Positions 26,080 through 60,681 of a stretch of 64,000 bases of DNA are shown piece after piece. The notes below the pieces were generated by a model, which saw only the letters and a program-made list of their open reading frames with translations, was not told the origin of the DNA and searched no databases. How positions within the stretch are numbered: the first letter of the stretch is position 1; the number at the start of each line of letters is the position of its first letter. The stretch comes from Bacteroidota bacterium (GTDB taxonomy: Bacteria; Bacteroidota; Bacteroidia; Bacteroidales; JAAUTT01). Location of the stretch: positions 19,879 to 83,878 of the forward strand of contig JAUZOO010000015.1 in assembly GCA_030706405.1 (NCBI GenBank). The letters run 5' to 3'. The translations under genes and the position numbers were made by a program.

Positions 26080-26844
26080 TTAATTTGTTTCCGTTTGTTT
26101 ATCCGTCTGCAAAGTGTCGGATTTCTTCTTTTTGTTTTCGGTACGGGTTTCAGTGGCGCGAGCGGTGGACATTGTAACCGAAATAAGTTCGTTCACAGCT
26201 TTCATATAATCCGCAAGCTTGGTGTTGGAGCTGTCGGCCGAATATTGCAGGTCGAGCAGCGTGAGCAACGACCGGATGGCATTAACCAGTAGCGGACGGG
26301 TTTCGTTGATGGTTGGGCCATCACTATCGGGTCGGCTAACACTCGCATTGAAGGTTTGTTCGAAATCGTCCTGGGCCGAAGCCAATTCGTTTAACCATTC
26401 GTTAGCAGCCAGCAGAGCCAGTTCGGCAGAACATTTGTTATTTATCTCAGCAATCATGCTGGTGATGGCAGCAGTACCGGTCTGGTAGCCGCGCGATGGT
26501 GCACTCCAACCATGTTTACGGATAATATCGGCCACACGCGTACCTGCTTCGTTCCAGCCTTTAGCAGGACGATGGCTGCAAGCTACAATGTAGTTGCGGA
26601 ACCCCAGGAACGAAGTGCCGCGCAGTGCATCCTTTTGGGCCAACAGCTCGGTATACGGGTTTTTAGATTCGCGTTCAAAAGCCTTGCAAAAGGTATCGTA
26701 TGCCGACGAATGCCGGGTGACGAACGGAGTAAAGATATGCTCTTCGGGTTCGTTAGCGATGGGCTCAAAAATTTTAACCAGGCGATGTCCAAATGTTTTT
26801 AATTGGTCGCTCGATAATAACGAGTAATTAAGGGAATCGATCAT
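26080..26844 (-). CDS. DUF6261 family helical protein
   Basis: From the ATG at 26844 the protein has 254 residues, no signal peptide and no membrane span. It is predominantly helical, with a Lys/Thr-rich disordered tail from about residue 230. The segments LSSDQLKTFGHRLVKIF and KNPYTELLAQKDALRGTSFLGFRNYI fit DUF6261, a Bacteroidota-only family of unknown function. An upstream TTG start would add a poorly conserved leader and is rejected. The 41-bp tandem array at 27027-27289 lies 182 bases upstream of this start, in the promoter-side spacer. Two other arrays in the window stand at similar distances from small genes. Confidence 0.72.
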   Translation of the reverse strand: MIDSLNYSLLSSDQLKTFGHRLVKIFEPIANEPEEHIFTPFVTRHSSAYDTFCKAFERESKNPYTELLAQKDALRGTSFLGFRNYIVACSHRPAKGWNEAGTRVADIIRKHGWSAPSRGYQTGTAAITSMIAEINNKCSAELALLAANEWLNELASAQDDFEQTFNASVSRPDSDGPTINETRPLLVNAIRSLLTLLDLQYSADSSNTKLADYMKAVNELISVTMSTARATETRTENKKKKSDTLQTDKQTETN

Positions 26845-27026
26845 AATTGTTGTTTTTAGAGTGAAAAAATAGTTAATGATTATTTTCGAAATTTTTTTTG
26901 GTTTGTTTTCAAGCATAAACATAACGGGTGATTATTGCTTATGCCCGGTATTTTTACAAAATGGCAGGCCGTTTGCCTATGGGTATTACTATTACAAGAT
27001 ATTGCGTGGCGAAAAATTTCTTCCTC

Positions 27027-27289
27027 GTTGAAATGCAGGAAGGTATTCGGCGGTCAATTTTTATCTCGTTGAAATGCGGAGATATAATTGACGGTCAATT
27101 TTTATCCCGTTGAAATGCAGAGACGAAATTGACGGTCAATTTTCATCCTGCAGAAATGCGGAGACATAATTGACGGCCAATTTTCATCTCGTTGAAATGC
27201 GGAGACGAAATTGACGGTCAGTTTTTATCCTGCAAAATTGCAGACACAAAATTGACGGCCGTTTTTCGCCCTGTCAAAATGCAGGAGCC
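27027..27289. repeat. 41-bp tandem array with palindromic core, 6.4 units
   Basis: Six consecutive 41-bp units begin at 27027, 27068, 27109, 27150, 27191 and 27232, and a partial seventh begins at 27273. Each opens with a form of GTTGAAATGCGGAGACG. Units 2 and 3 contain AATTGACGGTCAATT, a perfect palindrome about a central G (17 bp in unit 3). In units 4-6 one half has drifted, and unit 1 and the last units are the most diverged, as expected of an array ageing from its ends. The period is not a multiple of three and there is no conserved reading frame, so it is non-coding. Spacers of variable sequence are absent, so it is not a CRISPR. Confidence 0.9.
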
Positions 27290-27705
27290 CTAATCATTCG
27301 GTAAATAGTACTTAAAATATTAATCATACAATCCGGAAAACAGTATTGGTGGCATTAAAATAACCAATGTTGCATTGCACCAATTAATTAAACTTTTAAA
27401 ATTCCGACTTTGTTTATGGCGGATAATTTTTTGTTAATTGAAATTAAACATTTTTTTTCTTATAATAAACATCTCTATTTCAAATTTCTAAAACTTTTTG
27501 AAAAAAAAGACGATGTATACCGAATCCGTTATGTCTAAATTAATTATTAATTAATTACTCCCGTTTAGTTTTGTGCTATTAACAACTTCTTTTACTGGTT
27601 TTAACTATGTTTTGTTTATATGTTTTATCCAAAACAGTCATGTGAAAAATCGTCTTAGAATGTTGCTAACTAAACCTAATTAATAATTATAAAAATCATT
27701 AAAAA
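27290..27705 (+). promoter_or_regulatory. AT-rich leader of the GH71/99-like gene
   Basis: This 416-base spacer contains TAGTTTTG (27566-27573), a match to the TAnnTTTG -7 element, about 132 bases before the ATG at 27706. No clear -33 box is found. The remainder is AT-rich with no ORF or strong hairpin. Confidence 0.3.
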
Positions 27706-29400
27706 ATGAGAAGAATTGAAACATGGTTATTGGGAGTAATGCTCCTTGTAGCTGCCAGTTGTTCTAAAACCAATACTGTTGACAGTATGGAAAGTTCAGC
27801 AATGGGTAAAACAATGCTTAAATCATCGGCCGTAGGCGATGTAGTCGGAAAAGTAACGGTAGGTTACCAGGGATGGTGGGACTGTGCCGGCAGTGGCTCA
27901 CCTTTTAATTCGTGGCAGCACATGAACCTCGAATGTTGGCCCGATGTACGCGAATATACCAACACGTATGGAGGATGTACGTTTAACCAGGCAGGCGTTC
28001 TTCAACCGGCATTCAATGGTAATTTGGGCAATGGACAACCGGCAAAAATGTTCTCGTCGTGGAGTGACCAAACCGTTGACGTCCATTTTAAATGGATGAA
28101 ACTTTACGGCATCGATTGTGCCGCTCAGCAACGCTTTGGAAGTGCCATTGTAGCCGGAGCCAAAAAAGATTTCTTCGACCAGATTCTGACCAAAGTGAAA
28201 ACTTCGGCCGAAAAGTATGGTGTTAAATTTTACGTGATGTACGATTGCAGTGCAACCAACGCCATTGATACCGACTGGACAAATACGATTGTAAATACCT
28301 TGCACCTTACCTCGTCGTCGGCTTATGCCAAACAAAACGGCAAACCCGTTGTTGCCCTCTGGGGCGTTGGCAAAAGCGACCGCGGAAGTATTGCCGATTG
28401 GGTTGCCAAAATCAACTGGTTTAAGGCTCAGGGTTGTTATGTAATTGGTTGTCCGTTGCAGGGCTGGCGCAGCGGAACCGACATGTCGGCCTACAACGCT
28501 TGCGATATGATTATGCCCTGGATGGTCGGAAAAACCTCTACGGCGAACTTCCAGGGTTGGTATACCGACGACCTGACGTATTGTAATGCTCACGCGCTCG
28601 ATTACCAGGCCGATATCTATGCCGGTACATCTTTTTATAATACCGATGCTACCTGGGTGAAAAATAAAATTCCGCGTATGTACGGAAACTTTATGTGGCA
28701 GCAATTTTCGGCAGCCAAAAATGCAGGTGTAAACAGCGTTTATATTTCGATGTTCGACGAGGCTCAGGAGGCTACCCAAATTTTTAAAACTGCCGAAGAC
28801 GCTTCGATGATTCCTGCCGGGAACTATTTTCTCACGCTCGATGCCGACGGTGTTCCCTGTTCTTCCGATTTTTATCTGCGTTTAACCAACGAAGGCGGAA
28901 AAATGATCAAGGGGTTAATCCCATATCAGGAAACACACTCTACACCGTATACTAATTATCTGGACAGATGCGATGCCAATACCAGCTGGATTTCTGCAAA
29001 CACATTGTCGGTGAATACCAGCGACAAGAAAGAGGGAACAGGCTGCCTTCAATCGGTAGGAAGTGGCACCGACGAGTTTAAGAAAGTATTTACCGCGTTT
29101 AACAGCGGTGCAACTGTTGGCAATGGTTCGCTTCAGTTTTGGTATTATGTATCGGACGTTACCAAGTTAGGAACTTCCAACCAGGTGGAACTGGGTAGCG
29201 GCGGGGCTGCCGATACCAATGAGTACAACTGGAACATTGGTACGCTTGTTAATGGATGGAACCTTATTACCCTGAAGTTTAGCAATGCAGGTACAACTGG
29301 CGGAACTCCCAATCTGGGAGCAATTAACTGGTTTCGTATTTACCATGCCAAAACCGCCAGCATAACTACCAAGGTGGATGCTATCCAGATATTACCATAA
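27706..29400 (+). CDS. GH71/99-like glycoside hydrolase lipoprotein with C-terminal beta-sandwich
   Basis: The 564-residue lipoprotein (lipobox AASC, Cys19) has a TIM-barrel domain of the GH71/99-like group: VGKVTVGYQGWWDCAGSGSP, WQHMNLECWPD, FYVMYDCS, and MFDEAQEATQIFK, whose acidic residues correspond to the expected active site. GH99 members are endo-mannosyl hydrolases and GH71 members alpha-1,3-glucanases; this subgroup is uncharacterised. Residues about 400-564 form a second beta-sandwich domain (LQFWYYVSDV, NGWNLITLKF) like carbohydrate-binding or concanavalin-type modules. It is probably surface-anchored. There is no SusCD pair nearby. Confidence 0.82.
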   Translation: MRRIETWLLGVMLLVAASCSKTNTVDSMESSAMGKTMLKSSAVGDVVGKVTVGYQGWWDCAGSGSPFNSWQHMNLECWPDVREYTNTYGGCTFNQAGVLQPAFNGNLGNGQPAKMFSSWSDQTVDVHFKWMKLYGIDCAAQQRFGSAIVAGAKKDFFDQILTKVKTSAEKYGVKFYVMYDCSATNAIDTDWTNTIVNTLHLTSSSAYAKQNGKPVVALWGVGKSDRGSIADWVAKINWFKAQGCYVIGCPLQGWRSGTDMSAYNACDMIMPWMVGKTSTANFQGWYTDDLTYCNAHALDYQADIYAGTSFYNTDATWVKNKIPRMYGNFMWQQFSAAKNAGVNSVYISMFDEAQEATQIFKTAEDASMIPAGNYFLTLDADGVPCSSDFYLRLTNEGGKMIKGLIPYQETHSTPYTNYLDRCDANTSWISANTLSVNTSDKKEGTGCLQSVGSGTDEFKKVFTAFNSGATVGNGSLQFWYYVSDVTKLGTSNQVELGSGGAADTNEYNWNIGTLVNGWNLITLKFSNAGTTGGTPNLGAINWFRIYHAKTASITTKVDAIQILP

Positions 29401-29409
29401 CCTTAAATT

Positions 29410-29470
29410 ACCAACGAGAAAAATTGCCGGATTGACCGTTTCTCAAAATTGAGCAGTTTTTCTCGTTGGT
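29410..29470. terminator. Long hairpin between convergent genes
   Basis: ACCAACGAGAAAAA (29410-29423) and TTTTTCTCGTTGGT (29457-29470) are perfect 14-bp inverted repeats, with a 33-base loop, between two convergent stops. A/T runs lie inside the arms, so it may work for either strand. Confidence 0.65.
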
Positions 29471-29518
29471 AAGATTATTTCTGAACTTTTTGTCAGAGAT
29501 ATTTAACATCATAAGATA

Positions 29519-31486
29519 TTACCGAATTTTGATAACCCGTTGCGATTTTAACTGCCCCCTGGCATTTTGAACGGTAAGCAGGTACATTCCGGCATTGATA
29601 TCCGACGCCGGATAGGAAAACCGGTATTGCCCGGACTGCAATTCGGTGAATGGCATTAAGGTTTGTATTTTCCGGCCTGTCATCGAGAATAGCGAAATGG
29701 TTAGTTTTTCATTTTGTTGCAGTTGCAATTCAATATTCAGGTTATCGGTAAACGGGTTAGGCATTAACACGATGTTTACATCGAACAACGTGGCTTTGCA
29801 TTCTTCGAAATACGTACACGACGAACTTAGTTTCGATTTTACTTCGAGTGGAACGGCCGGGTCGCGCCTCATCATAATTGTTTTGTATTCCTGTTTGAGC
29901 TGGTTTCCAATGCGCGGAGGCAGGGAATCGAAAAAAGCTTCGGTTGGGGCGTACCAAAAGATTAAGTCATCCTCGAGTTGGTACCCATCAGGTAAATCTT
30001 TTTTTATCCTGACAGGAATTAATTCATTCATCTTTAAAGAATCTCCATTTGGTTCCTTTAGGCCTAATTTACGTAATATTTTTTCTTTAAAGTTTGAAAT
30101 AAATAGTGCGTAAACATCTAACTTAACAGGATTCCGTCTACCACCGCTAGTGCTAAAATCGGGATTTTTACTCAAAAATAGATGGTTGTTTATATTTCGA
30201 TAATCTATCCCTGCATCAAATTCTGTTTCGCCATTAAGAAAACGAATGCCAATTTTTTTTAATTCTTCTTTCGAGAGGTCTATATAATGAATATTTTCCA
30301 TGTAATCGTAGAATTCGTAATGCTTGTTGTAATCTACAAGGTTTGCATCCGGATATTTTTTCTTCAAAAGCTTTTTGTTTTCATAAAATTCTCTGACGTT
30401 TTGATACCTCGCGGGTAAAGCATTGTAAAAATCGTTGTTGGATACAAACCACAAAATTCTTGTTTTATAAACGATGTCGGTATAGTATTTCTGGCGGATA
30501 AGCACAGGAACCAGCGTATCGTCCATGCTCTTCAGCGGAAGTTTTAACATACTGAAAAGAAAATTCCGGTCGGTATTTTCGTTGAGCGAATCGAGGGTCG
30601 AAAAAAATCTCCTGGTAAAATTTGTAGAGTCCCAACGGTTATAAAATAGCGGGGAGGCAGTTTGGGGATAAAAGGGCAACAGTTCCTTATAATACGAAAC
30701 AGATACATTGTTAAAACTGTTGATGATTTGTTCGTTGGTGGAATAACAAAGATAAAACGGAAGGAACGATACGGTTTTCTCAATATCTTTTTGATATCTC
30801 GTTTTTCGTTTAAAGCCCGGGATTTGCCGGGATTCATAAGAAGCCCAGAAATAGGGCCGGTTGTACCCCGAAATGATTCCGTTGGGAGTGACGTTTAAAT
30901 AATACAGTCCGGAATCGTTTAATAAAACGCCAAGGTTTTTAAGCTCGTCGCTGGTCAGTTCCATAATATAATCGTCGCCCGAAGCCGGTTTCCCGTCCCA
31001 TTCGGGTAACGGTTCGGTTTTAGAAAAAGTTTCCGGTTGCTTATTGCTAATGGTTGTAGCAACAGTATTTGTTTTTGCCGGAATTACTGAGTCGGGAGCA
31101 ATGATAAGATGTGCTCCTTCTTTTATTGTTTTAGCCGTTAAATGCCCGTTCTTGCCATTGGAGGCTGTTGTTTGGCGGTTATTGTTTAGGCTATACGTTT
31201 TTTTCGCGATAAAATTCTGCGCATTGTTTTTAATAGTCGGCGATTTGTGTTGACCGGCTGGCATCAGCAATGTCACCCCAACAAATATGGACGAAATAAT
31301 TGTGCTCATGATGATAAGATTTAGGTACTTTTTAAAAAAATGTTTGACAGAGTGTCCCGAACTGGCCGGTTGCGGGGCGTGATATAATAAAAAGTGCACT
31401 TTTTCGTCATCGATGATGGGCGGTTGGTTCGCGGCCTTTTCAAATAACCGCTCGATATCTTTGTCTGAAAATTTTAGATTTTTCAT
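29519..31486 (-). CDS. Anti-sigma-like membrane protein with a C-terminal T9SS sorting tail
   Basis: The 655-residue protein begins with a cytosolic stretch (residues 1-50, KFSDKDIERLFEKAANQPPI), then one membrane span (about 53-76), as in anti-sigma factors. It overlaps the ECF sigma gene by four bases. A large extracytoplasmic part of about 500 residues follows, with no family I recognise. The last 80 residues (MPNPFTDNLNIELQLQQNE through GMYLLTVQNARGQLKSQRVI) are a classic type A sorting tail of the type IX secretion system. This combination is odd: T9SS cargo normally has a cleavable signal peptide, not an internal anchor after a cytosolic domain. It may be a surface-to-cytosol regulator. 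Confidence 0.78.
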   Translation of the reverse strand: MKNLKFSDKDIERLFEKAANQPPIIDDEKVHFLLYHAPQPASSGHSVKHFFKKYLNLIIMSTIISSIFVGVTLLMPAGQHKSPTIKNNAQNFIAKKTYSLNNNRQTTASNGKNGHLTAKTIKEGAHLIIAPDSVIPAKTNTVATTISNKQPETFSKTEPLPEWDGKPASGDDYIMELTSDELKNLGVLLNDSGLYYLNVTPNGIISGYNRPYFWASYESRQIPGFKRKTRYQKDIEKTVSFLPFYLCYSTNEQIINSFNNVSVSYYKELLPFYPQTASPLFYNRWDSTNFTRRFFSTLDSLNENTDRNFLFSMLKLPLKSMDDTLVPVLIRQKYYTDIVYKTRILWFVSNNDFYNALPARYQNVREFYENKKLLKKKYPDANLVDYNKHYEFYDYMENIHYIDLSKEELKKIGIRFLNGETEFDAGIDYRNINNHLFLSKNPDFSTSGGRRNPVKLDVYALFISNFKEKILRKLGLKEPNGDSLKMNELIPVRIKKDLPDGYQLEDDLIFWYAPTEAFFDSLPPRIGNQLKQEYKTIMMRRDPAVPLEVKSKLSSSCTYFEECKATLFDVNIVLMPNPFTDNLNIELQLQQNEKLTISLFSMTGRKIQTLMPFTELQSGQYRFSYPASDINAGMYLLTVQNARGQLKSQRVIKIR

Positions 31487-32037
31487 ATCAATTCGGTTTT
31501 AGAAAGGTTTGAAGATTGGTTCTGCAGCGCATTACTTTCGCTGTCGGAGAGTAATTGCCTGAGCCTGTATCGTGCGCGTTGAAGCCTGTTCTTTACGGCG
31601 GCTTCGGAAAGGTTGAGTTGCTGTTGAATCTCGAGCAACGAAAACCCCAAAATGTGGAACATGGTTAAAACCTCGCGTTGGTCGGTATTGAGTTTGGCAA
31701 TGGCATTATGGAGCAACGCAATGTCGGGCTGTATTTCGATGGCGTCGGGAGTAATGGCTACGCTTTGTTTTTCGGTTTCGGACTGGCTGCTCCAGAATTT
31801 CCAGCGGCGTTTTTGTTTAAGATGTCTGTTGCGGGCGATGCTGCACAGGTAATAAATGAAGGATTCGGTTTTGCGAAGCTCATCAAATTTCTCGAAAGCC
31901 GTCAGCAAGGTATCCTGCAATAAATCGAAGGCCGCATCTTCGTCCGCAGTCAAAGCCCTGCAATAAGCCGATAGCTGTCGCTGTACAGGCTTATACAGTA
32001 ACATGAAAGCGGATATTTTTTGATCTTTATCGTTCAA
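31483..32037 (-). CDS. ECF-type RNA polymerase sigma factor
   Basis: The 184-residue protein has region 2 (FDLLQDTLLTAFEKFDELR, then YYLCSIARNRHLKQKRR) and region 4 (LNTDQREVLTMFHILGFSLLEI and LSEAAVKNRLQRARYRLRQLL), joined by a short linker. This is the ECF sigma-70 layout. The C-terminal tail beyond region 4 is Ser/Asn-rich. It is the first gene of a two-gene operon with the membrane protein downstream, which would hold it inactive until signalled, by analogy with sigma/anti-sigma pairs. Confidence 0.9.
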   Translation of the reverse strand: MNDKDQKISAFMLLYKPVQRQLSAYCRALTADEDAAFDLLQDTLLTAFEKFDELRKTESFIYYLCSIARNRHLKQKRRWKFWSSQSETEKQSVAITPDAIEIQPDIALLHNAIAKLNTDQREVLTMFHILGFSLLEIQQQLNLSEAAVKNRLQRARYRLRQLLSDSESNALQNQSSNLSKTELI

Positions 32038-32189
32038 GGTTGTTATGTTTATTATAAAAGTACCGCAACGGATAAAAAAGTATCGGTAAAATGAGAAAAT
32101 ATATTGAATTTATGTTTCATAATTATGTTTAATTCAATTTGTATTTTTTTATACATTTATCCCATTCAATAAACCAACTAAATTTAAAT

Positions 32190-32912
32190 ATGAAAAAGAG
32201 TGCAATCGTTTTTACAATGTTTTTGGCATTTATTGTCGTATCAAAAAGTTATGGACAGGATTCAATAAAAGCAAATTATCGGGATTTTTTAACAGAGTTG
32301 AATGTTAATCTGTTTCAGGGAGAATTGTCGTTAAGTAATGCATTAAAAGAGGTTAAGGGTAGATATATGTTCGAAAAAGACAAGGCATTGAGAGGTGGAC
32401 TTATTATCGATAGCAAGAGAGAAACGGGTGAAGAGCTTACTATGTCAAAAAAAAAATATACCCGGACCAGTACTTTGATTGGTTTTAGTGTGGGAATTGA
32501 AAAACATTTTCCAGGCACCAAGCGGTTGTCTCCGTATATAGGCTGTGATCTTTTTGTAGCCAATAAGTGGACAAAAGAGAAAGATACTTTTTATGGGTCA
32601 ACAGCTGCTACTATAAATGGAGCCTGGGAAGAAACACAAATAGTGTCAACTACAGGGATGCTTTCGACAACAACGACAACATACGCGGAAAGAGGTTATT
32701 TTTCATGGGGCGTTAATTTTATATCCGGATTTGATTTTTACATAGCAAAACATCTGTTTGTGGGTTATGAAGTGGAATTTGGATTAACAGGTAAACAATA
32801 TTCTAAAATCGAGGAGTCCGGAAGTTATAAAAACACTATAAGTCCCGAAAGTAACGAATTTTCTATTGGCCCAAGGATAGTCAATGGAATTCGTATTGGT
32901 TATGTTTTTTAA
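32190..32912 (+). CDS. Outer membrane beta-barrel protein, unknown function
   Basis: From the ATG at 32190 the protein has 240 residues. It has a signal peptide (ending SYGQ, residue 23) and alternating hydrophobic strands, such as STLIGFSVGIEKHF, LSPYIGCDLFVANKW, YFSWGVNFISGFDFYI and IVNGIRIGYVF. A terminal aromatic residue follows, as expected of a small barrel. No family can be named with confidence. It is divergent from the ECF sigma gene, so it is a possible target. Confidence 0.7.
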   Translation: MKKSAIVFTMFLAFIVVSKSYGQDSIKANYRDFLTELNVNLFQGELSLSNALKEVKGRYMFEKDKALRGGLIIDSKRETGEELTMSKKKYTRTSTLIGFSVGIEKHFPGTKRLSPYIGCDLFVANKWTKEKDTFYGSTAATINGAWEETQIVSTTGMLSTTTTTYAERGYFSWGVNFISGFDFYIAKHLFVGYEVEFGLTGKQYSKIEESGSYKNTISPESNEFSIGPRIVNGIRIGYVF

Positions 32913-32977
32913 ATCACTACCTGTAATATAAATGGATATTTGCCAAATTATTAACATTTACAATACCTTAAAAAGCT

Positions 32978-33823
32978 ATGATTACATTTTTGAAAATTAA
33001 AAAGTTATCCATATGGGCAATCATGCTTTGTGTGGTGCTTTTTTGCTGTTTGAATATCAATGCGCAAAGTCGTTCTCCAAAATTCAGGGTAATCGCATTT
33101 TATACGGGTAAAAACGACCAGGCACACATCAGCTATGTACATGAGGCCAACCGCAGGTTTCCGAAGATGGCTGCAAAATATGGGTTTGCATACGATTCAA
33201 CCAATAACTGGAACAATCTTAATGCACAGTTTCTTTCCAAATATCAGGTTGTATTGTTTTTGGATACCCGGCCCGATGCACCCGAACAAAGAGCAGCCTT
33301 CCAAAAATACATGGAAAACGGTGGGGCCTGGATGGGGTTTCATTTTGCAGCCTTTGCTTTAACGCCTTCTACTTATCCTCAAAACTGGGACTGGTATCAT
33401 AACCAATTTCTGGGTTCAGGTTCGTATGCAGGTAACACATGGAAACCAACTTCTGCTATTTTACGTGTGGAAACCTCGCATCCGGCTACTAAAAATCTCC
33501 CTAAAACATTTAAAGCCTCACCTAACGAATGGTATAAATGGACCAATGATTTGCGCACCAATCCGGATATTCAGATTCTTTTGGCAGTCGATTCAACGAG
33601 TTTTCCATTGGGTACAGGTCCTAAACCTCATGAAATATGGCACAGCGGTTATTATCCGATGGTATGGACCAATAAAAAATACCGGATGATTTACGTAAAC
33701 ATGGGACATAATGACATCGATTATGAGCATAATTCCAATAAAGAACTCTCGTTTACGTTTGATAACGAAATTCAGAATAAATTAATCATTGATGGTCTGC
33801 TATGGCTGGGAAAAAGAAGGTAA
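32978..33823 (+). CDS. Exported ThuA domain protein
   Basis: The 281-residue protein has a signal peptide (about 29 residues, ending NINAQ) and a ThuA-like, GATase-fold domain: FRVIAFYTGKNDQAHISYVHE, YQVVLFLDTRPD, GGAWMGFHFAAF, WYHNQFLGSG, and PMVWTNKKYRMIYVNMGHND. ThuA proteins occur in sugar metabolism (trehalose utilisation, 3-keto-glycoside processing); the precise reaction here is unknown. It is separated from the barrel gene by 65 bases. Confidence 0.88.
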   Translation: MITFLKIKKLSIWAIMLCVVLFCCLNINAQSRSPKFRVIAFYTGKNDQAHISYVHEANRRFPKMAAKYGFAYDSTNNWNNLNAQFLSKYQVVLFLDTRPDAPEQRAAFQKYMENGGAWMGFHFAAFALTPSTYPQNWDWYHNQFLGSGSYAGNTWKPTSAILRVETSHPATKNLPKTFKASPNEWYKWTNDLRTNPDIQILLAVDSTSFPLGTGPKPHEIWHSGYYPMVWTNKKYRMIYVNMGHNDIDYEHNSNKELSFTFDNEIQNKLIIDGLLWLGKRR

Positions 33824-34122: not shown

Positions 34123-34157
34123 GCCTCTCTAAGTGATTAGAGAGGCTTTATTTTTTT
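34123..34157 (+). terminator. Intrinsic terminator following the thuA-like region
   Basis: GCCTCTCT (34123-34130) pairs with AGAGAGGC (34139-34146), followed by TTTATTTTTTT. It overlaps the stop of the convergent gene. Confidence 0.8.
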
Positions 34158-34960: not shown

Positions 34961-34976
34961 TAGCAAGAGGTTAAGT

Positions 34977-44836: not shown

Positions 44837-45046
44837 ACCAATATCAATTATGCCAAAATGAACTTCATAATGGCATATTAAACGTTGGTTTTGGCATTAT
44901 GAACATTGAAAATGCCGAAATGAATCTTCATTATGCCAAAATGAATGTTCATAAAGGCAAAATGAATATTGAAACTGGCATTCTCAACGTTGATTTTGGT
45001 ATATCCAACATTCATTGTGCCGATATTGATTTTTATAATGCTATTA
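44837..45046. repeat. 21-bp tandem array of near-palindromic units, 10 copies
   Basis: Ten 21-bp units run without gaps from 44837. They vary around TGAACATTCATTATGCCAAA plus one A. The 19-bp core TTCATTATGCCAAAATGAA is nearly palindromic: 9-base arms with one mispair about a central C, so both strands look alike. From 44899 a plus-strand frame of 60 codons is open. In it the array reads as seven-residue repeats of the type M-N-I/V/L-x-x-A/G-x. The same frame is stopped in the second and third units and there is no ribosome-binding site, so I treat the sequence as DNA or RNA structure first. It lies 166 bases upstream of the gene at 45213. Confidence 0.88.
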
Positions 45047-51278: not shown

Positions 51279-51291
51279 CGAACGAAATTAT

Positions 51292-53037: not shown

Positions 53038-53083
53038 CGATTTTAATTTTTTAATAAATTAGATGTTAGTTTAAATTATTTTT

Positions 53084-53102
53084 AAGTGTAAAAAATATAC
53101 TT
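53084..53102 (-). promoter_or_regulatory. Candidate AraR operator upstream of the symporter
   Basis: AAGTGT-N7-ATACTT, 19 bp, imperfectly palindromic. It shares length and both half-sites with the sequence at 55527-55545 upstream of araR. The match of two sites in one operon suggests a regulator target. Confidence 0.5.
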
Positions 53103-53180
53103 AATAATGGCCAAAGATATTAATATTTTCAAATAATAAACGATTGGCCACGATTTATTCGTTGCTAATTTAAGTTAAGG

Positions 53181-54734
53181 TTATTTGGTTGAAATTTCGA
53201 CACTTACAACCGATTTTGAAGGCATGATAACTTGCAATGTACTTCCGCTGATTTTTATTTTGTCAAATTTGGCAGGAATGATTTTAGCTGCTTTGCCAAA
53301 ATCGTTATAATCGTTCATTGCCTTGGAGGTTAAGACTTCGCTGGTAACGTTTCCTGCTTTAATGCTGCCTAAATCGAGGGTTACGGGATTCTCTGCATTA
53401 GGGTCAAGATTAGCAAGCGTTACGTGAATTTTACCATTTGCATCTTTGGAAGCCGAAACGCTAATAGCTGGGATAGATTCTTTATCCAACGTGTAGTTAC
53501 GACTGATTACACTAACAGGAATAAGCGTGGCATTCTGGTGAACTTTATACATACGGAAAACATAATACGAAGGAGTGAGCACCATTTTTTCTTTGTCGGT
53601 GAGAATCATCGATTGTAGTACATTGATTACCTGTGCAATGTTGGTCATTTTAATGCGGTCGGCATGGTTGTTGAAAATGTTCAGGTTGATGGCTGCAACC
53701 AGAGCGTCGCGCATAGTATTTTGCTGATAAAGGAATCCGGGATTTGTGCCAGGCTCAACATCATACCATGTTCCCCATTCGTCAACAATAAGGCCTACTC
53801 TTTTGGCTTTGTCGTATTTGTCCATCACCTTTAAATGTGTTTTAACAAGAGAGTCCATCATCGAGGTTTTTTTCATTACAGTAAACCATTCTTTTTCGGT
53901 AAATTCTGTTGAAGACCCCTTCTTGTCCCAGTCGCCGGGCAGGGTGTAATAATGAACACCAATTCCTTGGATATGTGAACCTGCGTTTTTCATCACAACA
54001 TCTGTCCAGTTGTAGTTAAAATCGCTGGCACCTGAAGCTACTTTGTTCACACCTCTTCCGGCATAGTTGATGTAAGTTCCGTATTGTTTGCACATGTCGG
54101 AATAATGTTCGGGAGTCATGTTTCCACCGCAGCCCCACGCTTCGTTACCAATACCGAAGTATTTCACTTTCCAGGGTTTTTCGCGTCCGTTTTGTTTGCG
54201 GAGTTTGGTCATGGGCGATTCGGCATCGGAAGTCATATACTCGGCCCATTCGGCCATTTCTTGTACCGTGCCGCTTCCTACATTGCCCGATATGTAAGCA
54301 TCGCAGCCCAATATTTCGCAAAGGTTGAGAAATTCATGAGTGCCAAAGCTGTTATCTTCAGTTGTCCGTCCCCAGTTTACGTTTACGATGGAGGCTCGTT
54401 TGTCACGAGGACCAATACCGTCTTTCCAATGATAGGTGTCGGCAAAACAGCCTCCGGGCCAGCGTAATACAGGGATGCTTAGATCTTTAAGGGCAGCCAC
54501 CACATCATTACGGTAACCTTTAGTATTAGGTATGGACGAATTTTCCCCAACCCATATACCTTCGTAAACACAGCGGCCAAGATGCTCGGCAAAATGACCA
54601 TAAATGTCCTTACTGATGGTAACCTTGGCATTCTCGGGTTGCAGGGTTATCGCATTTTTTTCCTGAGCATTTAAAGGTAAGTAACCTGCAATCAGGAACG
54701 ATAAAGTGAATAGAAAGTTGTTTGTTTTTTTCAT
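53181..54734 (-). CDS. Secreted alpha-L-arabinofuranosidase, GH51
   Basis: The 517-residue enzyme has a signal peptide (ending LNAQ, residue 24) and a GH51 catalytic domain: [33 protein letters not shown], the acid/base Glu198 in [11 protein letters not shown], and the nucleophile Glu319 in [12 protein letters not shown]-terminal beta-sandwich closes it. It releases terminal arabinose from arabinan or arabinoxylan, probably in the periplasm. It follows araR by 27 bases and feeds the araD/araB steps downstream. Confidence 0.95.
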
Positions 54735-54761
54735 AAGTTAAATTATAATTAATAGACTGTA

Positions 54762-55487
54762 TTAAGTGGTAATTTTAATAAGTGGCGATTTTTTTACTTT
54801 CATCTGGAAATGAAAGCCCATTTCGGCATACATGAGGTATTTCTCTTTATTAAACATGTAGTAATAAGCTCCTTTTTTGGAAGCTCCTTTTTCTTTTTCG
54901 TCGAGTTTTTCCAATAATCCGGTTTCGAGTATGCGTTTGCGGAAATTGCGTTTGTCGAGTTGTTCCTGGTTTATGGCTTCGTAAAGGCTTTGGAGTTGCG
55001 GAAGGGTGAACTTTTCGGGAAGAAGCTCAAAACCGATGGGTTTTCGTTCGGTACGGCTGCGAAGGGTACGCAGGGCTTTATCAACCATTTGGTTATGGTC
55101 AAAAATGAGCTGAGGAATCTGGTTTACCGAAACCCAATGAGCTCCGTGAGTTTCGGCCAGTTTACGGTCGTTTTCATCAACTTTGATGAGGGCGTAAAAT
55201 GCGATGGAAATGGTGCGTTCGCCGGGGTCGCGGTTTAATTCGCCAAAAACATGAAGTTGTTCCATGTAAATGTCCGAAAGCCCTGTTAATTGGTGTAGTA
55301 CCCTGCGGGCTCCTTCGTCTAAGCTTTCATCACTTTTTAAGAATCCACCCATTAAGGACCATTCGCCTTTGGCGGGCTCAAATTTTCGTTTTAATAATAA
55401 TAATTTGAGTTCTCCTTCGTCAAAACCGAAGATAATGCAGTCTAAAGCAACTAAGTGCTTGTCGTATTCTTTATAAAATTTAGCCAT
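54762..55487 (-). CDS. araR: Nudix-type arabinose regulator (AraR/NrtR family)
   Basis: An N-terminal Nudix domain (about residues 10-150) is followed by a winged helix (about 160-235, FTLPQLQSLYEAINQEQLDK and RKRILETGLL). The Nudix box reads GGFLKSDESLDEGARRVLHQ: the catalytic Glu pair is lost, as in Nudix regulators that bind sugars instead of cutting nucleotides. Bacteroides AraR, an arabinose-responsive repressor of this type, is the known precedent. It is the first gene of the operon and has a palindromic operator-like site 40 bases upstream, suggesting self-control. Confidence 0.9.
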   Translation of the reverse strand: MAKFYKEYDKHLVALDCIIFGFDEGELKLLLLKRKFEPAKGEWSLMGGFLKSDESLDEGARRVLHQLTGLSDIYMEQLHVFGELNRDPGERTISIAFYALIKVDENDRKLAETHGAHWVSVNQIPQLIFDHNQMVDKALRTLRSRTERKPIGFELLPEKFTLPQLQSLYEAINQEQLDKRNFRKRILETGLLEKLDEKEKGASKKGAYYYMFNKEKYLMYAEMGFHFQMKVKKSPLIKITT

Positions 55488-55526
55488 AAAGTATTGTCTG
55501 ATAAGATTATCAGTTGTTAGTTATGT

Positions 55527-55545
55527 AAGTGTTCAATATACACTT
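55527..55545 (-). promoter_or_regulatory. Candidate AraR operator upstream of araR
   Basis: AAGTGT-TCAATAT-ACACTT is a perfect 6-bp inverted repeat with a 7-base centre. A -7-like TATTTTTG (minus strand, 55572-55579) lies just upstream in the direction of transcription, so binding here would block early elongation. Confidence 0.55.
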
Positions 55546-55596
55546 TATAGCACGAAGGTAATTATATTTTACAAAAATAAAAGAGGTTAATAAGTC

Positions 55597-56709
55597 TTAT
55601 AGTAAGTTGATTAATTTTTGTGCGTTGATGAGGTTATTGTAGCTTTGGAAAAGAAGGGCCTTGCGCGCTGCAACTATTTCATCAGTAAATGGTAGCTTCA
55701 TTAAAGAATGTATTTTTTTGATCCATTCATCTGGGGTTTCGGCTATGAAACACAGAGGTCCAAGATAAGTTCCTTCTGTCATGGACCGATTTACCAGGCA
55801 ATGTCTGCCCGTATAAAGCGCCAGAAGAAGTTTAAGTTTAAGTCCGTTATTTTTAAGAACAGGAAGCACATGGATATGGGCATTAGTCAGTAGTTCCTGC
55901 ATTTCGGCAGGGTTCGGATTTGCAATTAACCGGATATTAGTGTTTTGAGAGATTAGTTTAGCCAGCTGAGCCGGTGGATTTTTCCCGGCAATAATGCACG
56001 GATACTTAATTTTTGAAAAAACTTTTTGAATAAGAAATATTGCAATACGTTGATTTTCATTTACCGACAAATCGCCGTGATACAGCAGGAAATCACCGTA
56101 TCCGGGAAGTCCTTCTACGGAATTGTAAGGGTGAGATGACGGAATGAATGTTGAATTGTGATAACGATTGTTAAAATATTCATGTTCGGTATGCGAAACG
56201 CATGCGATATGAGTGGCGTGTATAAGAATTTTTTCATATCGTTTTAACTTTATTGATTCTGCCAGCAGATATACTTTTTTGAATGGGTTGGTTTCCAATT
56301 TTGCCAGAGTTCTGTAGTATTGATGTTCAATATTGTGCATCCGTACCATTTTTATCCGGTTCTGAAATTGAGGAAAGTTAAGGCAAAATGTAGTGTGCAA
56401 CCCGTCGAAAAAAATAGGGTATGGGTTAGCCGATAGATTTTTGACAAGCTCTTCGGACGTACGGGTAGCTATAATATAAGGTAATGTCGAAAATTGGTAG
56501 CGCAAGCCTTGTTTTCGTTTATAGTAGTGGACCGTGTGACAAAGGGAATCCAGTTCGGGAGAAGTTTTTCGTCCGTATTGGAAGCAATGAAGATGAATTT
56601 TAACGCCTGCCTGATGAAGCGCCTTTATCCGGTAATATACGTCGATAACCCCTCCATAATCGGGAGGGTAGGGGATATTAAATGCAACGATATTTAAGTG
56701 GGCGTTCAA
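55597..56709 (-). CDS. Glycosyltransferase, GT4-like
   Basis: No in-frame ATG precedes the conserved part, so the start is uncertain. I chose the TTG at 56709 (LNAHLNIVAFNIPYPPDYGG, 370 residues); a TTG at 56769 is also open. The N-terminal GG motif after NIPYPPDYGG, MVRMHNIEHQYYRTLA, and the second-domain segments GDFLLYHGDLSVNENQRIAI and ANPNPAEMQELL fit GT-B glycosyltransferases of family 4. The expected EXE-type glutamates are not clear, so donor and acceptor are unknown. Confidence 0.78.
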   Translation of the reverse strand: MNAHLNIVAFNIPYPPDYGGVIDVYYRIKALHQAGVKIHLHCFQYGRKTSPELDSLCHTVHYYKRKQGLRYQFSTLPYIIATRTSEELVKNLSANPYPIFFDGLHTTFCLNFPQFQNRIKMVRMHNIEHQYYRTLAKLETNPFKKVYLLAESIKLKRYEKILIHATHIACVSHTEHEYFNNRYHNSTFIPSSHPYNSVEGLPGYGDFLLYHGDLSVNENQRIAIFLIQKVFSKIKYPCIIAGKNPPAQLAKLISQNTNIRLIANPNPAEMQELLTNAHIHVLPVLKNNGLKLKLLLALYTGRHCLVNRSMTEGTYLGPLCFIAETPDEWIKKIHSLMKLPFTDEIVAARKALLFQSYNNLINAQKLINLL

Positions 56710-56879
56710 ACTATTTTTTAATATGAAATTTATTTTTTGGCATAATATTTGTTTTGTCTTTAGCAACAACGGCTAATCCAAATATCATAAAGGTATTAGT
56801 TGTTTAAAGAGCGCATAAAAATATTTAAATTTTCATAATAAAATAGTTAGTTTTAGTTGGTAGTTAGTTTTGTGTTAGG

Positions 56880-56910
56880 GTGTCATCCATTTAGGGTGAC
56901 ACTTTTTTTG
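56880..56910 (+). terminator. Orphan plus-strand terminator-like hairpin
   Basis: GTGTCATCC and GGGTGACAC form a stem followed by seven T (56903-56909). The nearest upstream gene runs the other way. A TAGTTTTG -7-like box lies at 56865-56872. The pair could be a remnant argS leader or a tiny RNA. Confidence 0.6.
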
Positions 56911-56941
56911 TTTATCCCCCCTGGTAACGGATTTTGGTTGA

Positions 56942-57349
56942 GGTAATAACCCGGGGTAAACGCATTTAAACACATAAGTTGTATTTATTTAATGTCTTGT
57001 GACTTTTTTGTCGAAAAAAGTAACCAAAAACTCTGACTGCAAAAACTCGTTCCGCCTATCGGCTTCACTCGAACAGCTTGCAGCCATCATTGGTATTCTT
57101 TATTTTAGCCTTCGGCAGCTCCTAATTCAATCTTCCTGACAATCATCAGATCGAAGCCCCCGAAGGATAAACAAAAATTCCATATAATGACTGCGGGCTG
57201 TTTGAATGAAGTCGAGGCACGAGACGAAATGAGTTTCCGCAGTCAGACTTTTTCTTTGTTTCGTTTCTTTTTGGGGGCAAAAAGAAATGAAAAGCTTATA
57301 TACTGTCAGGCTTTAATATTTCTAAATGCGTTTGCTTTGGGTAATAACC
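56942..57349. mobile_element. 408-bp inverted-repeat (MITE-like) element
   Basis: The ends are 27-bp inverted repeats matching at 21 positions (GGTAATAACCC...AAACGCATTTA at left, its complement at right). Inner arms also pair: TCTGACTGC at 57032-57040 with GCAGTCAGA at 57239-57247, next to matching A-rich and CTCATTTCG-like blocks. The whole folds on itself as an imperfect cruciform. No transposase is encoded. A 60-codon frame at 57187-57369 runs along one arm and out of the element; I reject it as a gene. I recall similar palindromic blocks between genes in other Bacteroidota. No clear target duplication was found. Confidence 0.75.
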
Positions 57350-57356
57350 GCATTCC

Positions 57357-57388
57357 TTTGTGCTTTTAGAAAAAAACGTGTAGGTTTG
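57357..57388 (+). promoter_or_regulatory. Promoter of argS
   Basis: TTTG (57357-57360), 20 bases, then TAGGTTTG (57381-57388) is a full consensus promoter. It starts the transcript about 24 bases before the ATG at 57419 and fixes that start. The -33 box lies eight bases from the element edge. Confidence 0.75.
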
Positions 57389-57418
57389 CGTTTCATTTTA
57401 CGAAGTAATCAACAACAC

Positions 57419-59212
57419 ATGAGTGTCGAATCAATAGTTCAAAAAGGCGTTAGCGATGCCATTAAAGCCTTATATGGTGCCGATGTTAATGAAGATCAGG
57501 TGCAACTTCAGGAAACACGCAAGGATTTTACCGGCGATATTACCGTGGTAACTTTCCCGTTTCTGAAAATATCGAAGAAAAAACCAGTTGAGACAGGTGA
57601 GGAGATAGGTGCATATCTTAAAGAAAATGTAACGTATGTTGATAATGTTTCGGTAGTACAAGGTTTTTTGAACATCGAAATAAGCCGCGACTACTGGCTG
57701 TCCTCTTTGTCTTCCATTATCCGCGATGAAAATTACGGCTATGCAAAGCCCGAATCTACGGGACATACCATTATGGTCGAATATTCGTCGCCTAATACCA
57801 ATAAACCGCTTCACTTGGGGCACGTTCGCAACAACCTGTTGGGATATTCGGTGTCAAACCTCCTAAAAGCCTGTGGACATAGAGTAATCATGGTAAATTT
57901 GGTGAACGACAGGGGGATTCATATTTGTAAATCGATGCTTGCCTGGCAGAAATTCGGCGAAGGTATTACTCCCGAAAGTTCCGGAAAGAAAGGCGACCAT
58001 CTGGTAGGCGACTTCTATGTTATTTTCGATAAAGAGTACAAAAAACAGATTAAAGAACTGATAGCTGAAGGTAAAACCGAGGAAGAAGCTACTAAAACGG
58101 CTCCTCTTATCCTTGAGGCTCAGGAAATGCTCCGTAAATGGGAAGCCAAAGATGCCGAAGTGGTTGCCCTCTGGGAAATGATGAACAGTTGGGTTTATGG
58201 AGGTTTCGACGAAACTTATAAAAAGATGGGCGTCGGTTTCGATCGTATTTATCACGAATCGCAAACATATCTCTCAGGAAAGGCCATCGTTCAGAAAGGA
58301 CTTGAAGATAAGATACTCTACCAGCGTCCTGATAATTCCGTTTGGGCTGATTTAACCGGCGACGGTCTTGATGAAAAACTTTTGCTCCGTTCCGACGGAA
58401 CATCGGTATATATGACCCAGGATTTAGGAACAGCTTGTCAGCGCGTTGAGGAATATAAAGCCGACCAGATGATTTACGTGGTTGGTAACGAACAAAACTA
58501 CCATTTTCAGGTATTGTCGCTTGTTCTTCAAAAATTGGGCTATTCGTGGGCGTCTCAAATCAAACACATGTCGTACGGAATGGTTGAGCTGCCCAGCGGA
58601 AAAATGAAAAGCCGCGAAGGAACCGTTGTTGATGCCGACGATTTGATGGACGAGATGATCGGTACAGCCGAAGCCATGTCCAACGAACTTGGAAAACTTG
58701 ATGGGTATACCGAGGAAGAAAAGAAAAATATCTTCCGCATCATCGGTCTTGGCGCTTTAAAATATTTTATCCTTAAAGTCGATCCAAAAAAGAACATGCT
58801 TTTCGACCCTAAGGAATCGGTTGACTTTAATGGAAACACCGGCCCGTTCATTCAATACACTTATACCCGCATCCGTTCAATCATGCGTAAGGCAGACGAG
58901 ATGGGCATTGTTGTTACTGACGAAGTTAGTTCTGATGTACAGGTTGATAATAAGGAGAAACAACTCATTAAGCTTATTTATCGTTATCCGTCGGTGATAC
59001 AAGATGCCGGCGATACGCTTAGTCCTGCGTTGGTTGCCAATTATGTTTATGAACTTGCCAAAGAATTTAATCAGTTCTATCACGATTTTACCATCCTGAA
59101 AGAAGAAAATACCGACATCCGTAATTTAAGGTTGATACTTGCTAAAGTAACTGGCTCAATTATTCAATCGGGCATGGCGTTGCTTGGAATTGAGGTGCCG
59201 GAAAGAATGTAA
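57419..59212 (+). CDS. argS: Arginyl-tRNA synthetase
   Basis: The 597-residue class I synthetase charges tRNA-Arg. It shows the N-terminal Add1 domain (to about residue 110), the HIGH-like SSPNTNKPLHLGHVRNNLLG, the middle catalytic region with VNDRGIHICKSMLAWQ and VVGNEQNYHFQVL, the KMSK-like KMKSREGTVV, and a DALR anticodon-binding domain (YVYELAKEFNQFYHDFTIL). I start at the ATG 57419; the longer open frame from 57326 would read through the promoter and the inverted-repeat element. Confidence 0.97.
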   Translation: MSVESIVQKGVSDAIKALYGADVNEDQVQLQETRKDFTGDITVVTFPFLKISKKKPVETGEEIGAYLKENVTYVDNVSVVQGFLNIEISRDYWLSSLSSIIRDENYGYAKPESTGHTIMVEYSSPNTNKPLHLGHVRNNLLGYSVSNLLKACGHRVIMVNLVNDRGIHICKSMLAWQKFGEGITPESSGKKGDHLVGDFYVIFDKEYKKQIKELIAEGKTEEEATKTAPLILEAQEMLRKWEAKDAEVVALWEMMNSWVYGGFDETYKKMGVGFDRIYHESQTYLSGKAIVQKGLEDKILYQRPDNSVWADLTGDGLDEKLLLRSDGTSVYMTQDLGTACQRVEEYKADQMIYVVGNEQNYHFQVLSLVLQKLGYSWASQIKHMSYGMVELPSGKMKSREGTVVDADDLMDEMIGTAEAMSNELGKLDGYTEEEKKNIFRIIGLGALKYFILKVDPKKNMLFDPKESVDFNGNTGPFIQYTYTRIRSIMRKADEMGIVVTDEVSSDVQVDNKEKQLIKLIYRYPSVIQDAGDTLSPALVANYVYELAKEFNQFYHDFTILKEENTDIRNLRLILAKVTGSIIQSGMALLGIEVPERM

Positions 59213-59374
59213 TTGTTTCCTTGTACAGGATTTCTACAATCCCGATAACCTGATAAACATTGTTTATTGATGGTTATCGGGATTTTGTTTGAAAAAACCT
59301 TTTGTCATCAAAAATTAAAAGACCAGTTATACACTTTTGGGGACATTTCTTACAAAATAAATTTATTTAGAAGC
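59213..59374. other. argS 3' spacer with stem-loop
   Basis: Just after the argS stop, ATCCCGATAACC and GGTTATCGGGAT (about 59237-59285) form a long inverted repeat followed by TTTG TTT, a likely terminator. The rest is AT-rich without a gene. Confidence 0.6.
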
Positions 59375-59731
59375 TTTTGTTACTCAATCAGAAACTTTTG
59401 TCACTCAATTAGTAGATTTTATGCGACAAGTTGTCTGTTTTGTACGGCAATCAGTTAATTTTATGCGACATGTTGTCGTGTTTAGCACTCCTTTTGATGA
59501 TTTTATGCGACAAGTAGATAATTCAGTGCGACGAGTAGACGATTTGTTACGGCAAGTAAATAGTTTGATGCGACGTTTGAATAGTTTTGTGTGGCAAGTA
59601 GAACATTTTGTGTGACGAGTAAATACTTTGGATTGAAAAGTAGATACCTGAAAAGTATTTTGAAACATCTGTTGGCTCATTTCAATAGATTTAGCTGCCC
59701 ATTGATGGCTTTTTCTGTCGATTAGCTGTTC
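59375..59731. repeat. 21-bp tandem array, about 17 units, open on both strands
   Basis: Units of exactly 21 bp from 59375 vary around TTTTATGCGACAAGTAGATA plus one purine. Divergence grows toward both ends. On the minus strand 111 codons are open from the ATG at 59740: a start of about 30 residues (MGSEQLIDRKSHQWAAKSIE) and then seven-residue repeats like STCRIKS and FTRHTKC. On the plus strand 64 codons (59421-59615) give the heptads MRQVVCF, VRQSVNF, MRRLNSF. Both cannot easily be under selection, so either one frame is a true repeat protein or the period of 21 keeps both open by chance. It ends 236 bases upstream of the gene at 59968. Confidence 0.85.
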
Positions 59732-59967
59732 CGAACCCATTGTTAGTGCCTTCTACTGCTCAAACAAGGTTTATGGTTACCCATTGCTAACAAACAGAAT
59801 GTTTTTAAACCAATCGCTAAACAATGGGAATAATTAATGTTTATCTTGGACAAGTTTTATTGCTACATAATACCTAATTATGAAAATTGCTGTGGATATA
59901 ATCCAATTACAATCGTAAATGAGTTAGCTGACAAACTTAAAAGCACGCACATAAGATAATTTAAAAA

Positions 59968-60681
59968 ATGAATAAAATTCCAATAATACGAAAAGGTAGC
60001 TATAAGGATTATTTGAATAGTAGTGTAGGCGGTGGATTTATACTGGGATTATTGTTTTTTTTGATTTCATTACCTAGTAATTCAGCAATTAATTCCATGT
60101 GGATAGGATTGTTACTTTGGATTGGTGTGATTATTCTATTTATTGGTGTGGGATTTACAAGTGAGGAGTATTTTAAGAGAAAACAAAAGATAAAAAGATT
60201 ATATTCTGATAGGTATGCTTTTCTTGATAAAAATGCTTTTGTATTGCATCAAGATTTATATTTCGAAGGTATCTATCGGGATTACCATTTTCGTGTTTTA
60301 CCAATGACCAAATGGCAAGAGCGTAAAAAGAATATTGAATATGTCATAATTGAAGCGTTTTATACATTTGATAATGGACAAATTGATAGTGAAAGAGAAA
60401 AGAATTTAAGTGGAGATTATTTTCTTGGACAATTATATTTTGCAAATCATTGTGTCGGATTTGTTCCAAAGGATTGGAAATTGCCGAATTTTAAGGAAAA
60501 CTTTGATGGATTAATTGATATATTAAAGCGGGAGAGATTAATGCCTTTTCCCAAATTAGAATGGGAGGGTATATTTGGGAAAAAACTTAAAGAAGAAGAA
60601 CTTAAAGAAGAAAAATCAAGGACTAAACAGATTTTAAAGATTGGGAAACTTGACTTAAAATATGTAAAACCAAAAAAATAA
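59968..60681 (+). CDS. Two-span membrane protein of unknown function
   Basis: This 237-residue protein has two membrane spans (about residues 22-38 and 44-64) after a short N-terminus, then a basic-rich cytosolic domain (RKQKIKRLYSDRYAFL, WQERKKNIEYVIIEAF) and a Lys/Glu-rich tail. I do not recognise a family. Codon use is more AT-rich than in argS, suggesting an accessory gene. The 21-bp array lies upstream and a structured spacer downstream. Confidence 0.65.
   Translation: MNKIPIIRKGSYKDYLNSSVGGGFILGLLFFLISLPSNSAINSMWIGLLLWIGVIILFIGVGFTSEEYFKRKQKIKRLYSDRYAFLDKNAFVLHQDLYFEGIYRDYHFRVLPMTKWQERKKNIEYVIIEAFYTFDNGQIDSEREKNLSGDYFLGQLYFANHCVGFVPKDWKLPNFKENFDGLIDILKRERLMPFPKLEWEGIFGKKLKEEELKEEKSRTKQILKIGKLDLKYVKPKK

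What the first reader, a model, noticed from the sequence alone, without database searches (positions are those of the whole stretch)
26080..60681. Three short-period tandem arrays each stand 165-240 bp upstream of a small gene of unknown function
Seen: arrays at 27027-27289 (41 bp), 44837-45046 (21 bp) and 59375-59731 (21 bp). Each lies on the start-codon side of a gene: DUF6261 (182 bp), the 126-residue helical protein (166 bp) and the 237-residue membrane protein (236 bp). The unit sequences differ, while period class, palindromic tendency, spacing and orientation are alike. Inference: array and gene form a module in which the array is a structured DNA or RNA ligand for the helical protein, a regulatory region, or a source of repeat peptide. 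Two of the proteins are all-helical, Bacteroidota-only and without known function. This is my main candidate for an undescribed system.
Basis: partly seen in the sequence, partly recalled or inferred. Interest (0 to 1): 0.75.

Follow-up and report, generated by a model that had tools for sequence, protein, structure and literature searches.

The report
Paired DNA arrays beside helical-protein genes
In this bacterium and in relatives across its phylum, genes for unstudied, likely helical proteins sit beside arrays of short DNA repeats spaced two turns of the double helix apart, and most arrays examined in this genome have one matching array elsewhere, so each protein and its array pair likely form an undescribed system that would link, or jointly control, two places on the chromosome.

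Summary
The three arrays are real; one order-3 shuffle of 2.81 Mb gives none. In the fetched 57% of the genome, 13 of 14 genes of four likely helical families have a 21/42-bp array within 700 bp upstream, against 31 of 2131 other genes; in 22 named Bacteroidota loci of the 126-residue family 15 have one within 1 kb, against 4 of 118 other windows. New: 22 of 31 arrays form 11 reciprocal pairs, while 0 of 31 match any of 29 foreign arrays as well. Ten pairs join a gene-side array to a remote one; units differ between pairs. Window array 3 is the remote partner of an array beside a gene on contig C9, so the membrane protein is not its partner. The 20.5-21-bp phase, palindromes (23 of 40 arrays), 41-bp periods and lack of within-copy compensation favour duplex DNA sites over hairpins or peptides. 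Likeliest: iteron-like docking arrays that the cognate protein would bind and bridge. Against: most of the proteins are not basic, none has a known DNA-binding domain, and units differ between 70%-identical proteins. Function is untested.

The parts
27008..27284 (.). Array 1, 41-bp period, gene-side array of DUF6261; its one remote partner is G000:C1:450680-451006
   Evidence: lag 41 score 138.8; whole-genome search finds exactly one other array, E 3.6e-45; reciprocal best pair, 209 bits
26080..26922 (-). DUF6261 gene (likelier start codon at 26844); gene-side partner of array 1
   Evidence: PF19775 E 2.2e-18, 67.1 bits against a cut-off of 27; one of 5 in the genome
44824..45082 (.). Array 2, 21-bp period, gene-side array of the 126-residue gene; remote partner G000:C2:97553-97720 (the weakest of the 11 pairs)
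   Evidence: lag 21 score 54.4; reciprocal best pair at 72 bits, best foreign array 68 bits
45213..45593 (+). Gene of the 126-residue protein, AlphaFold2 model of three long helices plus short ones; gene-side partner of array 2
   Evidence: 32 homologues listed, query itself included; model pLDDT 80.9, pTM 0.51; array upstream in 15 of 22 named homologous loci
59361..59711 (.). Array 3, 21/42-bp period, REMOTE member of a pair whose gene-side member is G000:C9:15911-16184, next to the 3' end of a 245-residue gene (C9:16283-17020 minus); 59650-59711 is my extension from the match beyond the scored array
   Evidence: scored 59361-59649; reciprocal best pair, 209 bits; 62-bp extension at 81% identity

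Best explanation
Arrays of DNA units phased at two helical turns stand beside genes for likely helical proteins, most of those examined in this genome have one matching array elsewhere, and each pair is likely a set of double-stranded docking sites that the cognate protein would bind and bridge. Shown here: the association of arrays with four protein families, the 20.5-21-bp phase, the palindromes in many of them, the pairing, and the private sequence of each pair. Inferred: that the sites are protein-bound duplex DNA (from phase, palindromes and lack of hairpin compensation), that the binder is the protein encoded next door (from one pair per gene), that the gene-side array also controls that gene, and that the protein holds both arrays together, much as iteron initiators handcuff two sets of sites. 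The result would be many mutually independent two-site bridges in one chromosome.
For: Arrays at 13 of 14 genes of four families against 31 of 2131 other genes, p 2e-22; 15 of 22 named 126-family loci against 4 of 118 other 1-kb windows, p 1e-11. 22 of 31 arrays in 11 reciprocal best pairs of at least 70 bits; 0 of 31 reach 70 bits against 29 foreign arrays. Ten pairs are one gene-side plus one remote array; probability of ten mixed pairs if pairing ignored this is 0.0055. An eleventh gene-side array (DUF6261 L002) has one partner on C16, so 11 of 14 gene-side arrays have one found. Whole-genome search with window array 1 gives exactly one partner. Period 41, 42 or 83 in all 16 DUF6261 arrays found by score; second palindrome 20.5 or 21 bp from the first in 11 of 24 long-period arrays; palindromy p at most 0.005 in 23 of 40 arrays; conservation highest 2-7 bp from the centre. 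Arms no more complementary within a copy than between copies: 33 centres, mean difference -0.013 (s.e. 0.010), 14 positive. Array lengths within ten pairs correlate (Pearson 0.83, Spearman 0.64). Remote arrays lie in tandem, divergent and convergent gaps (8, 6, 2) much like other gaps (235, 117, 43), so a promoter role is not general.
Against: Only 3 of 14 proteins have pI above 8 and none shows a known DNA-binding domain. Units are unrelated between some proteins 70-71% identical (L191-L195, L190-L198). In some pairs the copies match in order (identity 0.74 against 0.60 in the next register; 0.71 against 0.62), which suggests array copying rather than only a shared binding consensus. Palindromy is not significant in 17 of 40 arrays at p 0.005, window array 3 among them. 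One array (remote FN3b) does show more pairing within copies, +0.177. Three gene-side arrays have no partner array by whole-genome search, four remote arrays have none among those fetched, one weak pair has no such gene at either end that I could see, and of two arrays tested in other genomes one had a partner, one had none. One gene has its array downstream. Bridging rests on pairing alone.
Confidence: 0.4

Rival explanations
1. Each protein is, or controls, a very specific regulator: the gene-side array is its own operator and the remote array is the operator of one target gene; no bridging is needed.
For: 13 of 14 gene-side arrays lie upstream; one remote array per gene; several remote arrays lie in divergent gaps (6 of 16).
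Against: Remote arrays show no preference for promoter-side gaps (8 tandem, 6 divergent, 2 convergent against 235, 117, 43). No full Bacteroidota-type promoter match lies between array and start codon in 13 gene-side loci (the consensus is recalled). No known DNA-binding domain.
Confidence: 0.25
2. The array is a mobile or copied element, like REP doublets, and the helical protein helps to copy or maintain it; the remote array is a copy without a function of its own.
For: Copy order is shared in some pairs; flanks of the two arrays are unrelated in 9 of 10 pairs and no gene relic lies at ten remote arrays, as if the array alone moved.
Against: No transposase or nuclease domain in the proteins; one partner rather than many copies; pairs keep their units while units differ between pairs.
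Confidence: 0.15
3. The arrays are transcribed and act as RNA, as hairpin arrays in a leader or as a structured ligand of the protein.
For: Many palindromes have 3-4-base loops by eye. In 3 of 13 loci the only full promoter-like match lies upstream of the array. One array shows more pairing within copies.
Against: Overall no compensation within copies; no Rfam family in the window; remote arrays in every gap orientation.
Confidence: 0.1
4. Neutral satellites, or coding repeats of seven residues.
For: 21 bp is seven codons, and several arrays leave a reading frame open.
Against: Periods 41 and 83 break the frame; enrichment at four families and in many genomes; pairing; none in a shuffle.
Confidence: 0.04

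Closest known systems
Iteron arrays with their initiators (plasmid Rep; RctB of Vibrio cholerae chromosome 2)
   Same: Arrays of protein sites phased to the helix next to the gene of the binding protein, further sites elsewhere, and handcuffing between sets of sites: 12-mers head to tail with 10-11-bp spacing, a 29-mer site in the rctB promoter, a remote titrating locus (PMC6090056, passages read)
   Different: No initiator domain in these proteins; many independent pairs in one genome; not tied to an origin as far as seen
REP/BIME repeats with RAYT transposases
   Same: Palindromic repeats tied to, and changing together with, one gene per repeat family (PMC2817692, abstract and passages read)
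   Different: RAYTs are transposases of the IS200/IS605 type and REPs usually exceed 100 copies per genome (same passages); here no transposase domain and one remote array per family tested
CRISPR arrays
   Same: Regularly spaced, partly palindromic repeats
   Different: Contiguous degenerate units without unique spacers; this genome's CRISPR-like arrays look quite different (47-bp repeats, 30-bp variable parts)
parC/ParR- and parS/ParB-type centromeres
   Same: Arrays or clusters of sites bound by a protein encoded next to them (recalled)
   Different: No Par domain in the proteins by Pfam; many different arrays on the contigs of one genome

Membership tests
Iteron/initiator system | Helix-phased repeat array beside the gene of its binder, plus a remote array of the same unit | tested here: met
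   20.5-21-bp phase; gene-side and remote pairs. That the neighbour is the binder is inferred.
Iteron/initiator system | Replication-initiator (Rep) domain in the protein | tested here: not met
   No such domain in DUF6261, the 126-residue protein or 7 further proteins
Iteron/initiator system | Protein binds the repeats and handcuffs arrays | not testable with these tools
   Needs purified protein
REP/RAYT | Transposase_17-type transposase gene flanked by the repeats | tested here: not met
   No transposase domain
REP/RAYT | High copy number of dispersed repeats | tested here: not met
   Window array 1: one partner array in the whole genome
CRISPR | Near-identical repeats separated by unique spacers | tested here: not met
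   Contiguous degenerate units
DUF6261 (PF19775) | Profile match over the cut-off | tested here: met
   67.1 bits against 27 for the window gene; all 19 matches over the cut-off
One superfamily for the four protein families | Profile-profile homology | tested here: inconclusive
   DUF6261 against FN3 type P 0.00015 in one run and 0.0029 in the other, N-terminus on N-terminus; other pairs P 0.014 or worse
Two-bundle sensor (McpS/TorS-like) fold | Same fold as the DUF6261 model | tested here: inconclusive

The most novel reading that the evidence does not exclude
Bacteroidota chromosomes carry a set of mutually independent pairwise addresses: each helical protein, with its own private repeat code, ties the control region of its own gene to one other place in the genome, so that many specific locus-to-locus contacts are written in DNA as matching array pairs.
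Probability: 0.25. Interest if true: 0.93.

Novelty: categorically new. Interest (0 to 1): 0.8.

Why it matters
DUF6261 and its companions have no known function, and the FN3-like family alone is in 62 of 295 sampled genomes of the class. Tying them to a private, paired DNA code turns 'function unknown' into a directly testable protein-DNA question. If bridging holds, it would be a new way to organise or co-regulate a bacterial chromosome through many specific contacts, and a source of orthogonal DNA-tethering parts for the laboratory.

Tried and rejected
Considered and set aside: coding repeats (41 and 83 bp); RNA hairpins; Rfam RNAs (window only); CRISPR; REP/RAYT; defence systems (PADLOC, five proteins: best hits E 0.0024 and 0.021, chance-like); phage or plasmid origin (PHROGs; FN3a no match in plasmids or phages; the 126-residue protein none in plasmids; DUF6261 one hit, Prevotella nigrescens; FN3 family none confirmed in viral contigs). 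The idea that protein size sets unit size (DUF6261 41/42 bp, 126 family mostly 21 bp) fails for the 240-, 245- and 307-residue proteins (21 bp) and one FN3-type gene (42 bp). An early reading that the 245-residue gene has its array upstream was wrong: it lies past the stop codon. Foldseek found no PDB match for either model. The FN3-type and 240-307-residue proteins were not folded; 'likely helical' is my reading of their sequences. Rows dropped: C15:61166 (inside an ORF) and C12:259293 (84-bp lag, another repeat type), so 33 became 31. The 40 arrays were a hand-made list; only arrays with a palindrome score of at least 1.8 entered.

Literature (listings only unless said): DUF6261 gave one unrelated paper; six searches for such arrays gave nothing on point; two searches for analogues led to PMC6090056 and PMC2817692, of which passages were read. 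Only an open-licence library was searched.
Full report
OBSERVATION. The window lies at C7:19879-83878 of a 4.93-Mb genome in 21 contigs. In 2.81 Mb of the genome the scan (lags 12-90) finds 48 arrays; one order-3 shuffle of the same bases gives none. 33 of the 48 have a period of the 21-bp class (20, 21, 41, 42, 82-84) among their two best lags, and 30 of those 33 are outside any longer ORF.

THE MODULE IS GENERAL. The genome has five DUF6261 genes and two genes of the 126-residue family. All seven, and the one 126-family gene of genome G003, have such an array directly upstream, above every one of 40 resampled controls each, all with different units. Scanning for arrays without regard to genes then led to two more families: a 204-207-residue family with an FN3-like C-terminal part (four genes in the fetched part, six in the genome), and a 240-307-residue family (three genes in the fetched part, related to each other). 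Of these 14 genes 13 have an array within 700 bp upstream, against 31 of 2131 other genes (Fisher p 2e-22); those 31 include neighbours of the same arrays. The fourteenth has its array just past its stop codon. In other genomes: of 14 DUF6261 loci from four genomes (5 of 295 genomes of the class have the family, the own genome included), 10 have an array by score, an eleventh by eye (L056), one is masked there (L061) and two have none (L052, L055). Prevotella nigrescens has a 41-bp array at its DUF6261 gene; the annotated start lies inside the array. For the 126 family 15 of 22 named loci have one, against 4 of 118 other 1-kb windows of the same loci (p 1e-11); they come from Marinilabiliales, Chitinophagaceae, Mariniphaga, Prolixibacteraceae, Lacihabitans, Spirosoma, Flavobacterium, Jiulongibacter and less defined Bacteroidota. 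In three of the 15 (L191, L195, L197) the array lies 450-940 bp away; one of the seven misses (L188) has a sub-threshold 42-bp signal. The FN3-like family is in 62 of 295 genomes of the class, but its loci there could not be fetched.

PAIRS. All-against-all comparison of 31 arrays of the genome gives 11 reciprocal best pairs of at least 70 bits (22 arrays); against 29 arrays of other genomes none of the 31 reaches 70 bits. The weakest pair (window array 2, 72 bits) is close to the foreign maximum of 69 and should be held loosely. In ten pairs one array lies at a gene of the four families and the other does not; in the eleventh (C14, C4) a contig end lies beside one array and no such gene was seen. 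If pairing ignored that status, ten mixed pairs would arise with probability 0.0055. Window array 1 has exactly one partner in the whole genome; the array of the DUF6261 gene L002 has one on an unfetched contig. Three gene-side arrays have no partner array by the same search (one gave a single 37-bp hit at E 0.009). A remote array, C12:179510, pairs weakly (E 2e-5) with one on C9, neither beside such a gene that I could see. Four further remote arrays have no partner among the arrays fetched and were not searched genome-wide. For pairs other than those, a second partner in the unfetched 43% is not excluded. In another genome of the order the one array tested has a partner (E 2e-34) and a weaker third relative; in a further genome the one array tested has none. 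The flanks of paired arrays are unrelated in 9 of 10 pairs; in the tenth, that of window array 3, a 62-bp stretch adjoining the array matches, which I read as more array. No gene relic lies within 2.5 kb of the ten remote arrays tested. Lengths within pairs correlate. Window array 3 is the remote member of the pair whose gene-side member lies on C9 beside the 245-residue gene.

WHAT THE ARRAYS ARE. The basic step is 20.5-21 bp, two turns of B-DNA. In the 16 DUF6261 arrays found by score the best lag is 41, 42 or 83, and in 11 of 24 long-period arrays the two best palindromes sit 20.5 or 21 bp apart. Palindromy is significant (p at most 0.005) in 23 of 40 arrays and not in the rest, window array 3 included. 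Conservation is highest 2-7 bp from the centre (the centres were chosen for palindromy, which favours this). Arms are not more complementary within a copy than between copies (33 centres, mean difference -0.013, Wilcoxon p 0.10; one array is a clear exception at +0.177). This speaks against hairpins and for two-fold symmetric protein sites on duplex DNA. Remote arrays lie in tandem, divergent and convergent gaps (8, 6, 2) like other gaps (235, 117, 43) (short spurious ORFs affect some of these calls), so a promoter role is not general. A recalled Bacteroidota promoter pattern was found upstream of the array in 3 of 13 gene-side loci and between array and gene in none, which leaves transcription of some arrays open.

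THE PROTEINS. AlphaFold2 predicts DUF6261 (L001) as eight long helices, which I read as two bundles (pLDDT 88.2, pTM 0.53), and the 126-residue protein as three long helices plus short ones (pLDDT 80.9, pTM 0.51). No PDB relative was found by Foldseek; the second look was within noise. Weak profile similarity joins DUF6261 and the FN3 type. Three of 14 have a pI above 8; the last 30 residues of the five DUF6261 proteins are net positive (+2 to +8). The lack of basic surface overall is the main argument against direct DNA binding. A second is that array units differ between some proteins 70-71% identical; related arrays were seen in 4 of 6 protein pairs at 70% identity or more, 4 of 16 at 55-70, 6 of 40 at 45-55 and 6 of 109 below. 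Either specificity changes fast, or the unit is set by something else, for instance by copying between the two arrays, for which the shared copy order in some pairs speaks.

MECHANISM. Best supported, at 0.4: phased duplex sites bound by the cognate protein, with bridging of the gene-side and the remote array, similar in working to iteron handcuffing but not a member of that family (no initiator domain found). Shown: association, phase, palindromes in many arrays, pairing. Inferred: binder, autoregulation, bridging. Rivals: one-target regulators (0.25), array-copying elements (0.15), RNA (0.1), neutral or coding repeats (0.04).

NOVELTY. Nothing on DUF6261 function or on such arrays turned up in seven searches of an open-licence library. 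I rate the system as categorically new, with the mechanism open.

Noticed in passing
G000:C8:17-3066 (L116) and G000:C3:194060-196035 (L163): 77-bp period arrays of a 47-bp repeat with 30-bp variable parts at two contig ends, most likely CRISPR arrays.
   Followed up: partly
L213:2730-2932 (Prevotella nigrescens NZ_CP082843.1): The annotated start of the DUF6261 gene (locus 2845) lies inside the 41-bp array; an in-frame ATG at 2983 looks likelier.
   Followed up: partly
L001, L003 and G000:C15:240799-240934: Arrays of two DUF6261 genes 45% identical, and a third array, share one half-unit (AAAAAGTCAGGCA-like) while the other half differs, as if half-units evolve separately.
   Followed up: no
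G000:C12:179510-179756 and G000:C9:63406-63494: A weak pair of arrays (E 2e-5) with none of the four kinds of gene seen at either end.
   Followed up: partly
G000:C6:89173-89395: A 23-bp period array of palindromes whose units change in steps along the array; not paired with the others.
   Followed up: no
G033:C2:67567-67676 (L178): A third array sharing the TTTTGCACGC half-unit of the L053 pair, with a different second half.
   Followed up: no
L173:6988-7911 minus (G000:C17): The 307-residue member carries a C-terminal carboxypeptidase-regulatory-like domain (PF13620, E 4.4e-8) on the otherwise likely helical protein.
   Followed up: no
window 60584-60612: An exact 15-bp tandem duplication inside the 237-residue membrane-protein gene, probably unrelated.
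   Followed up: no
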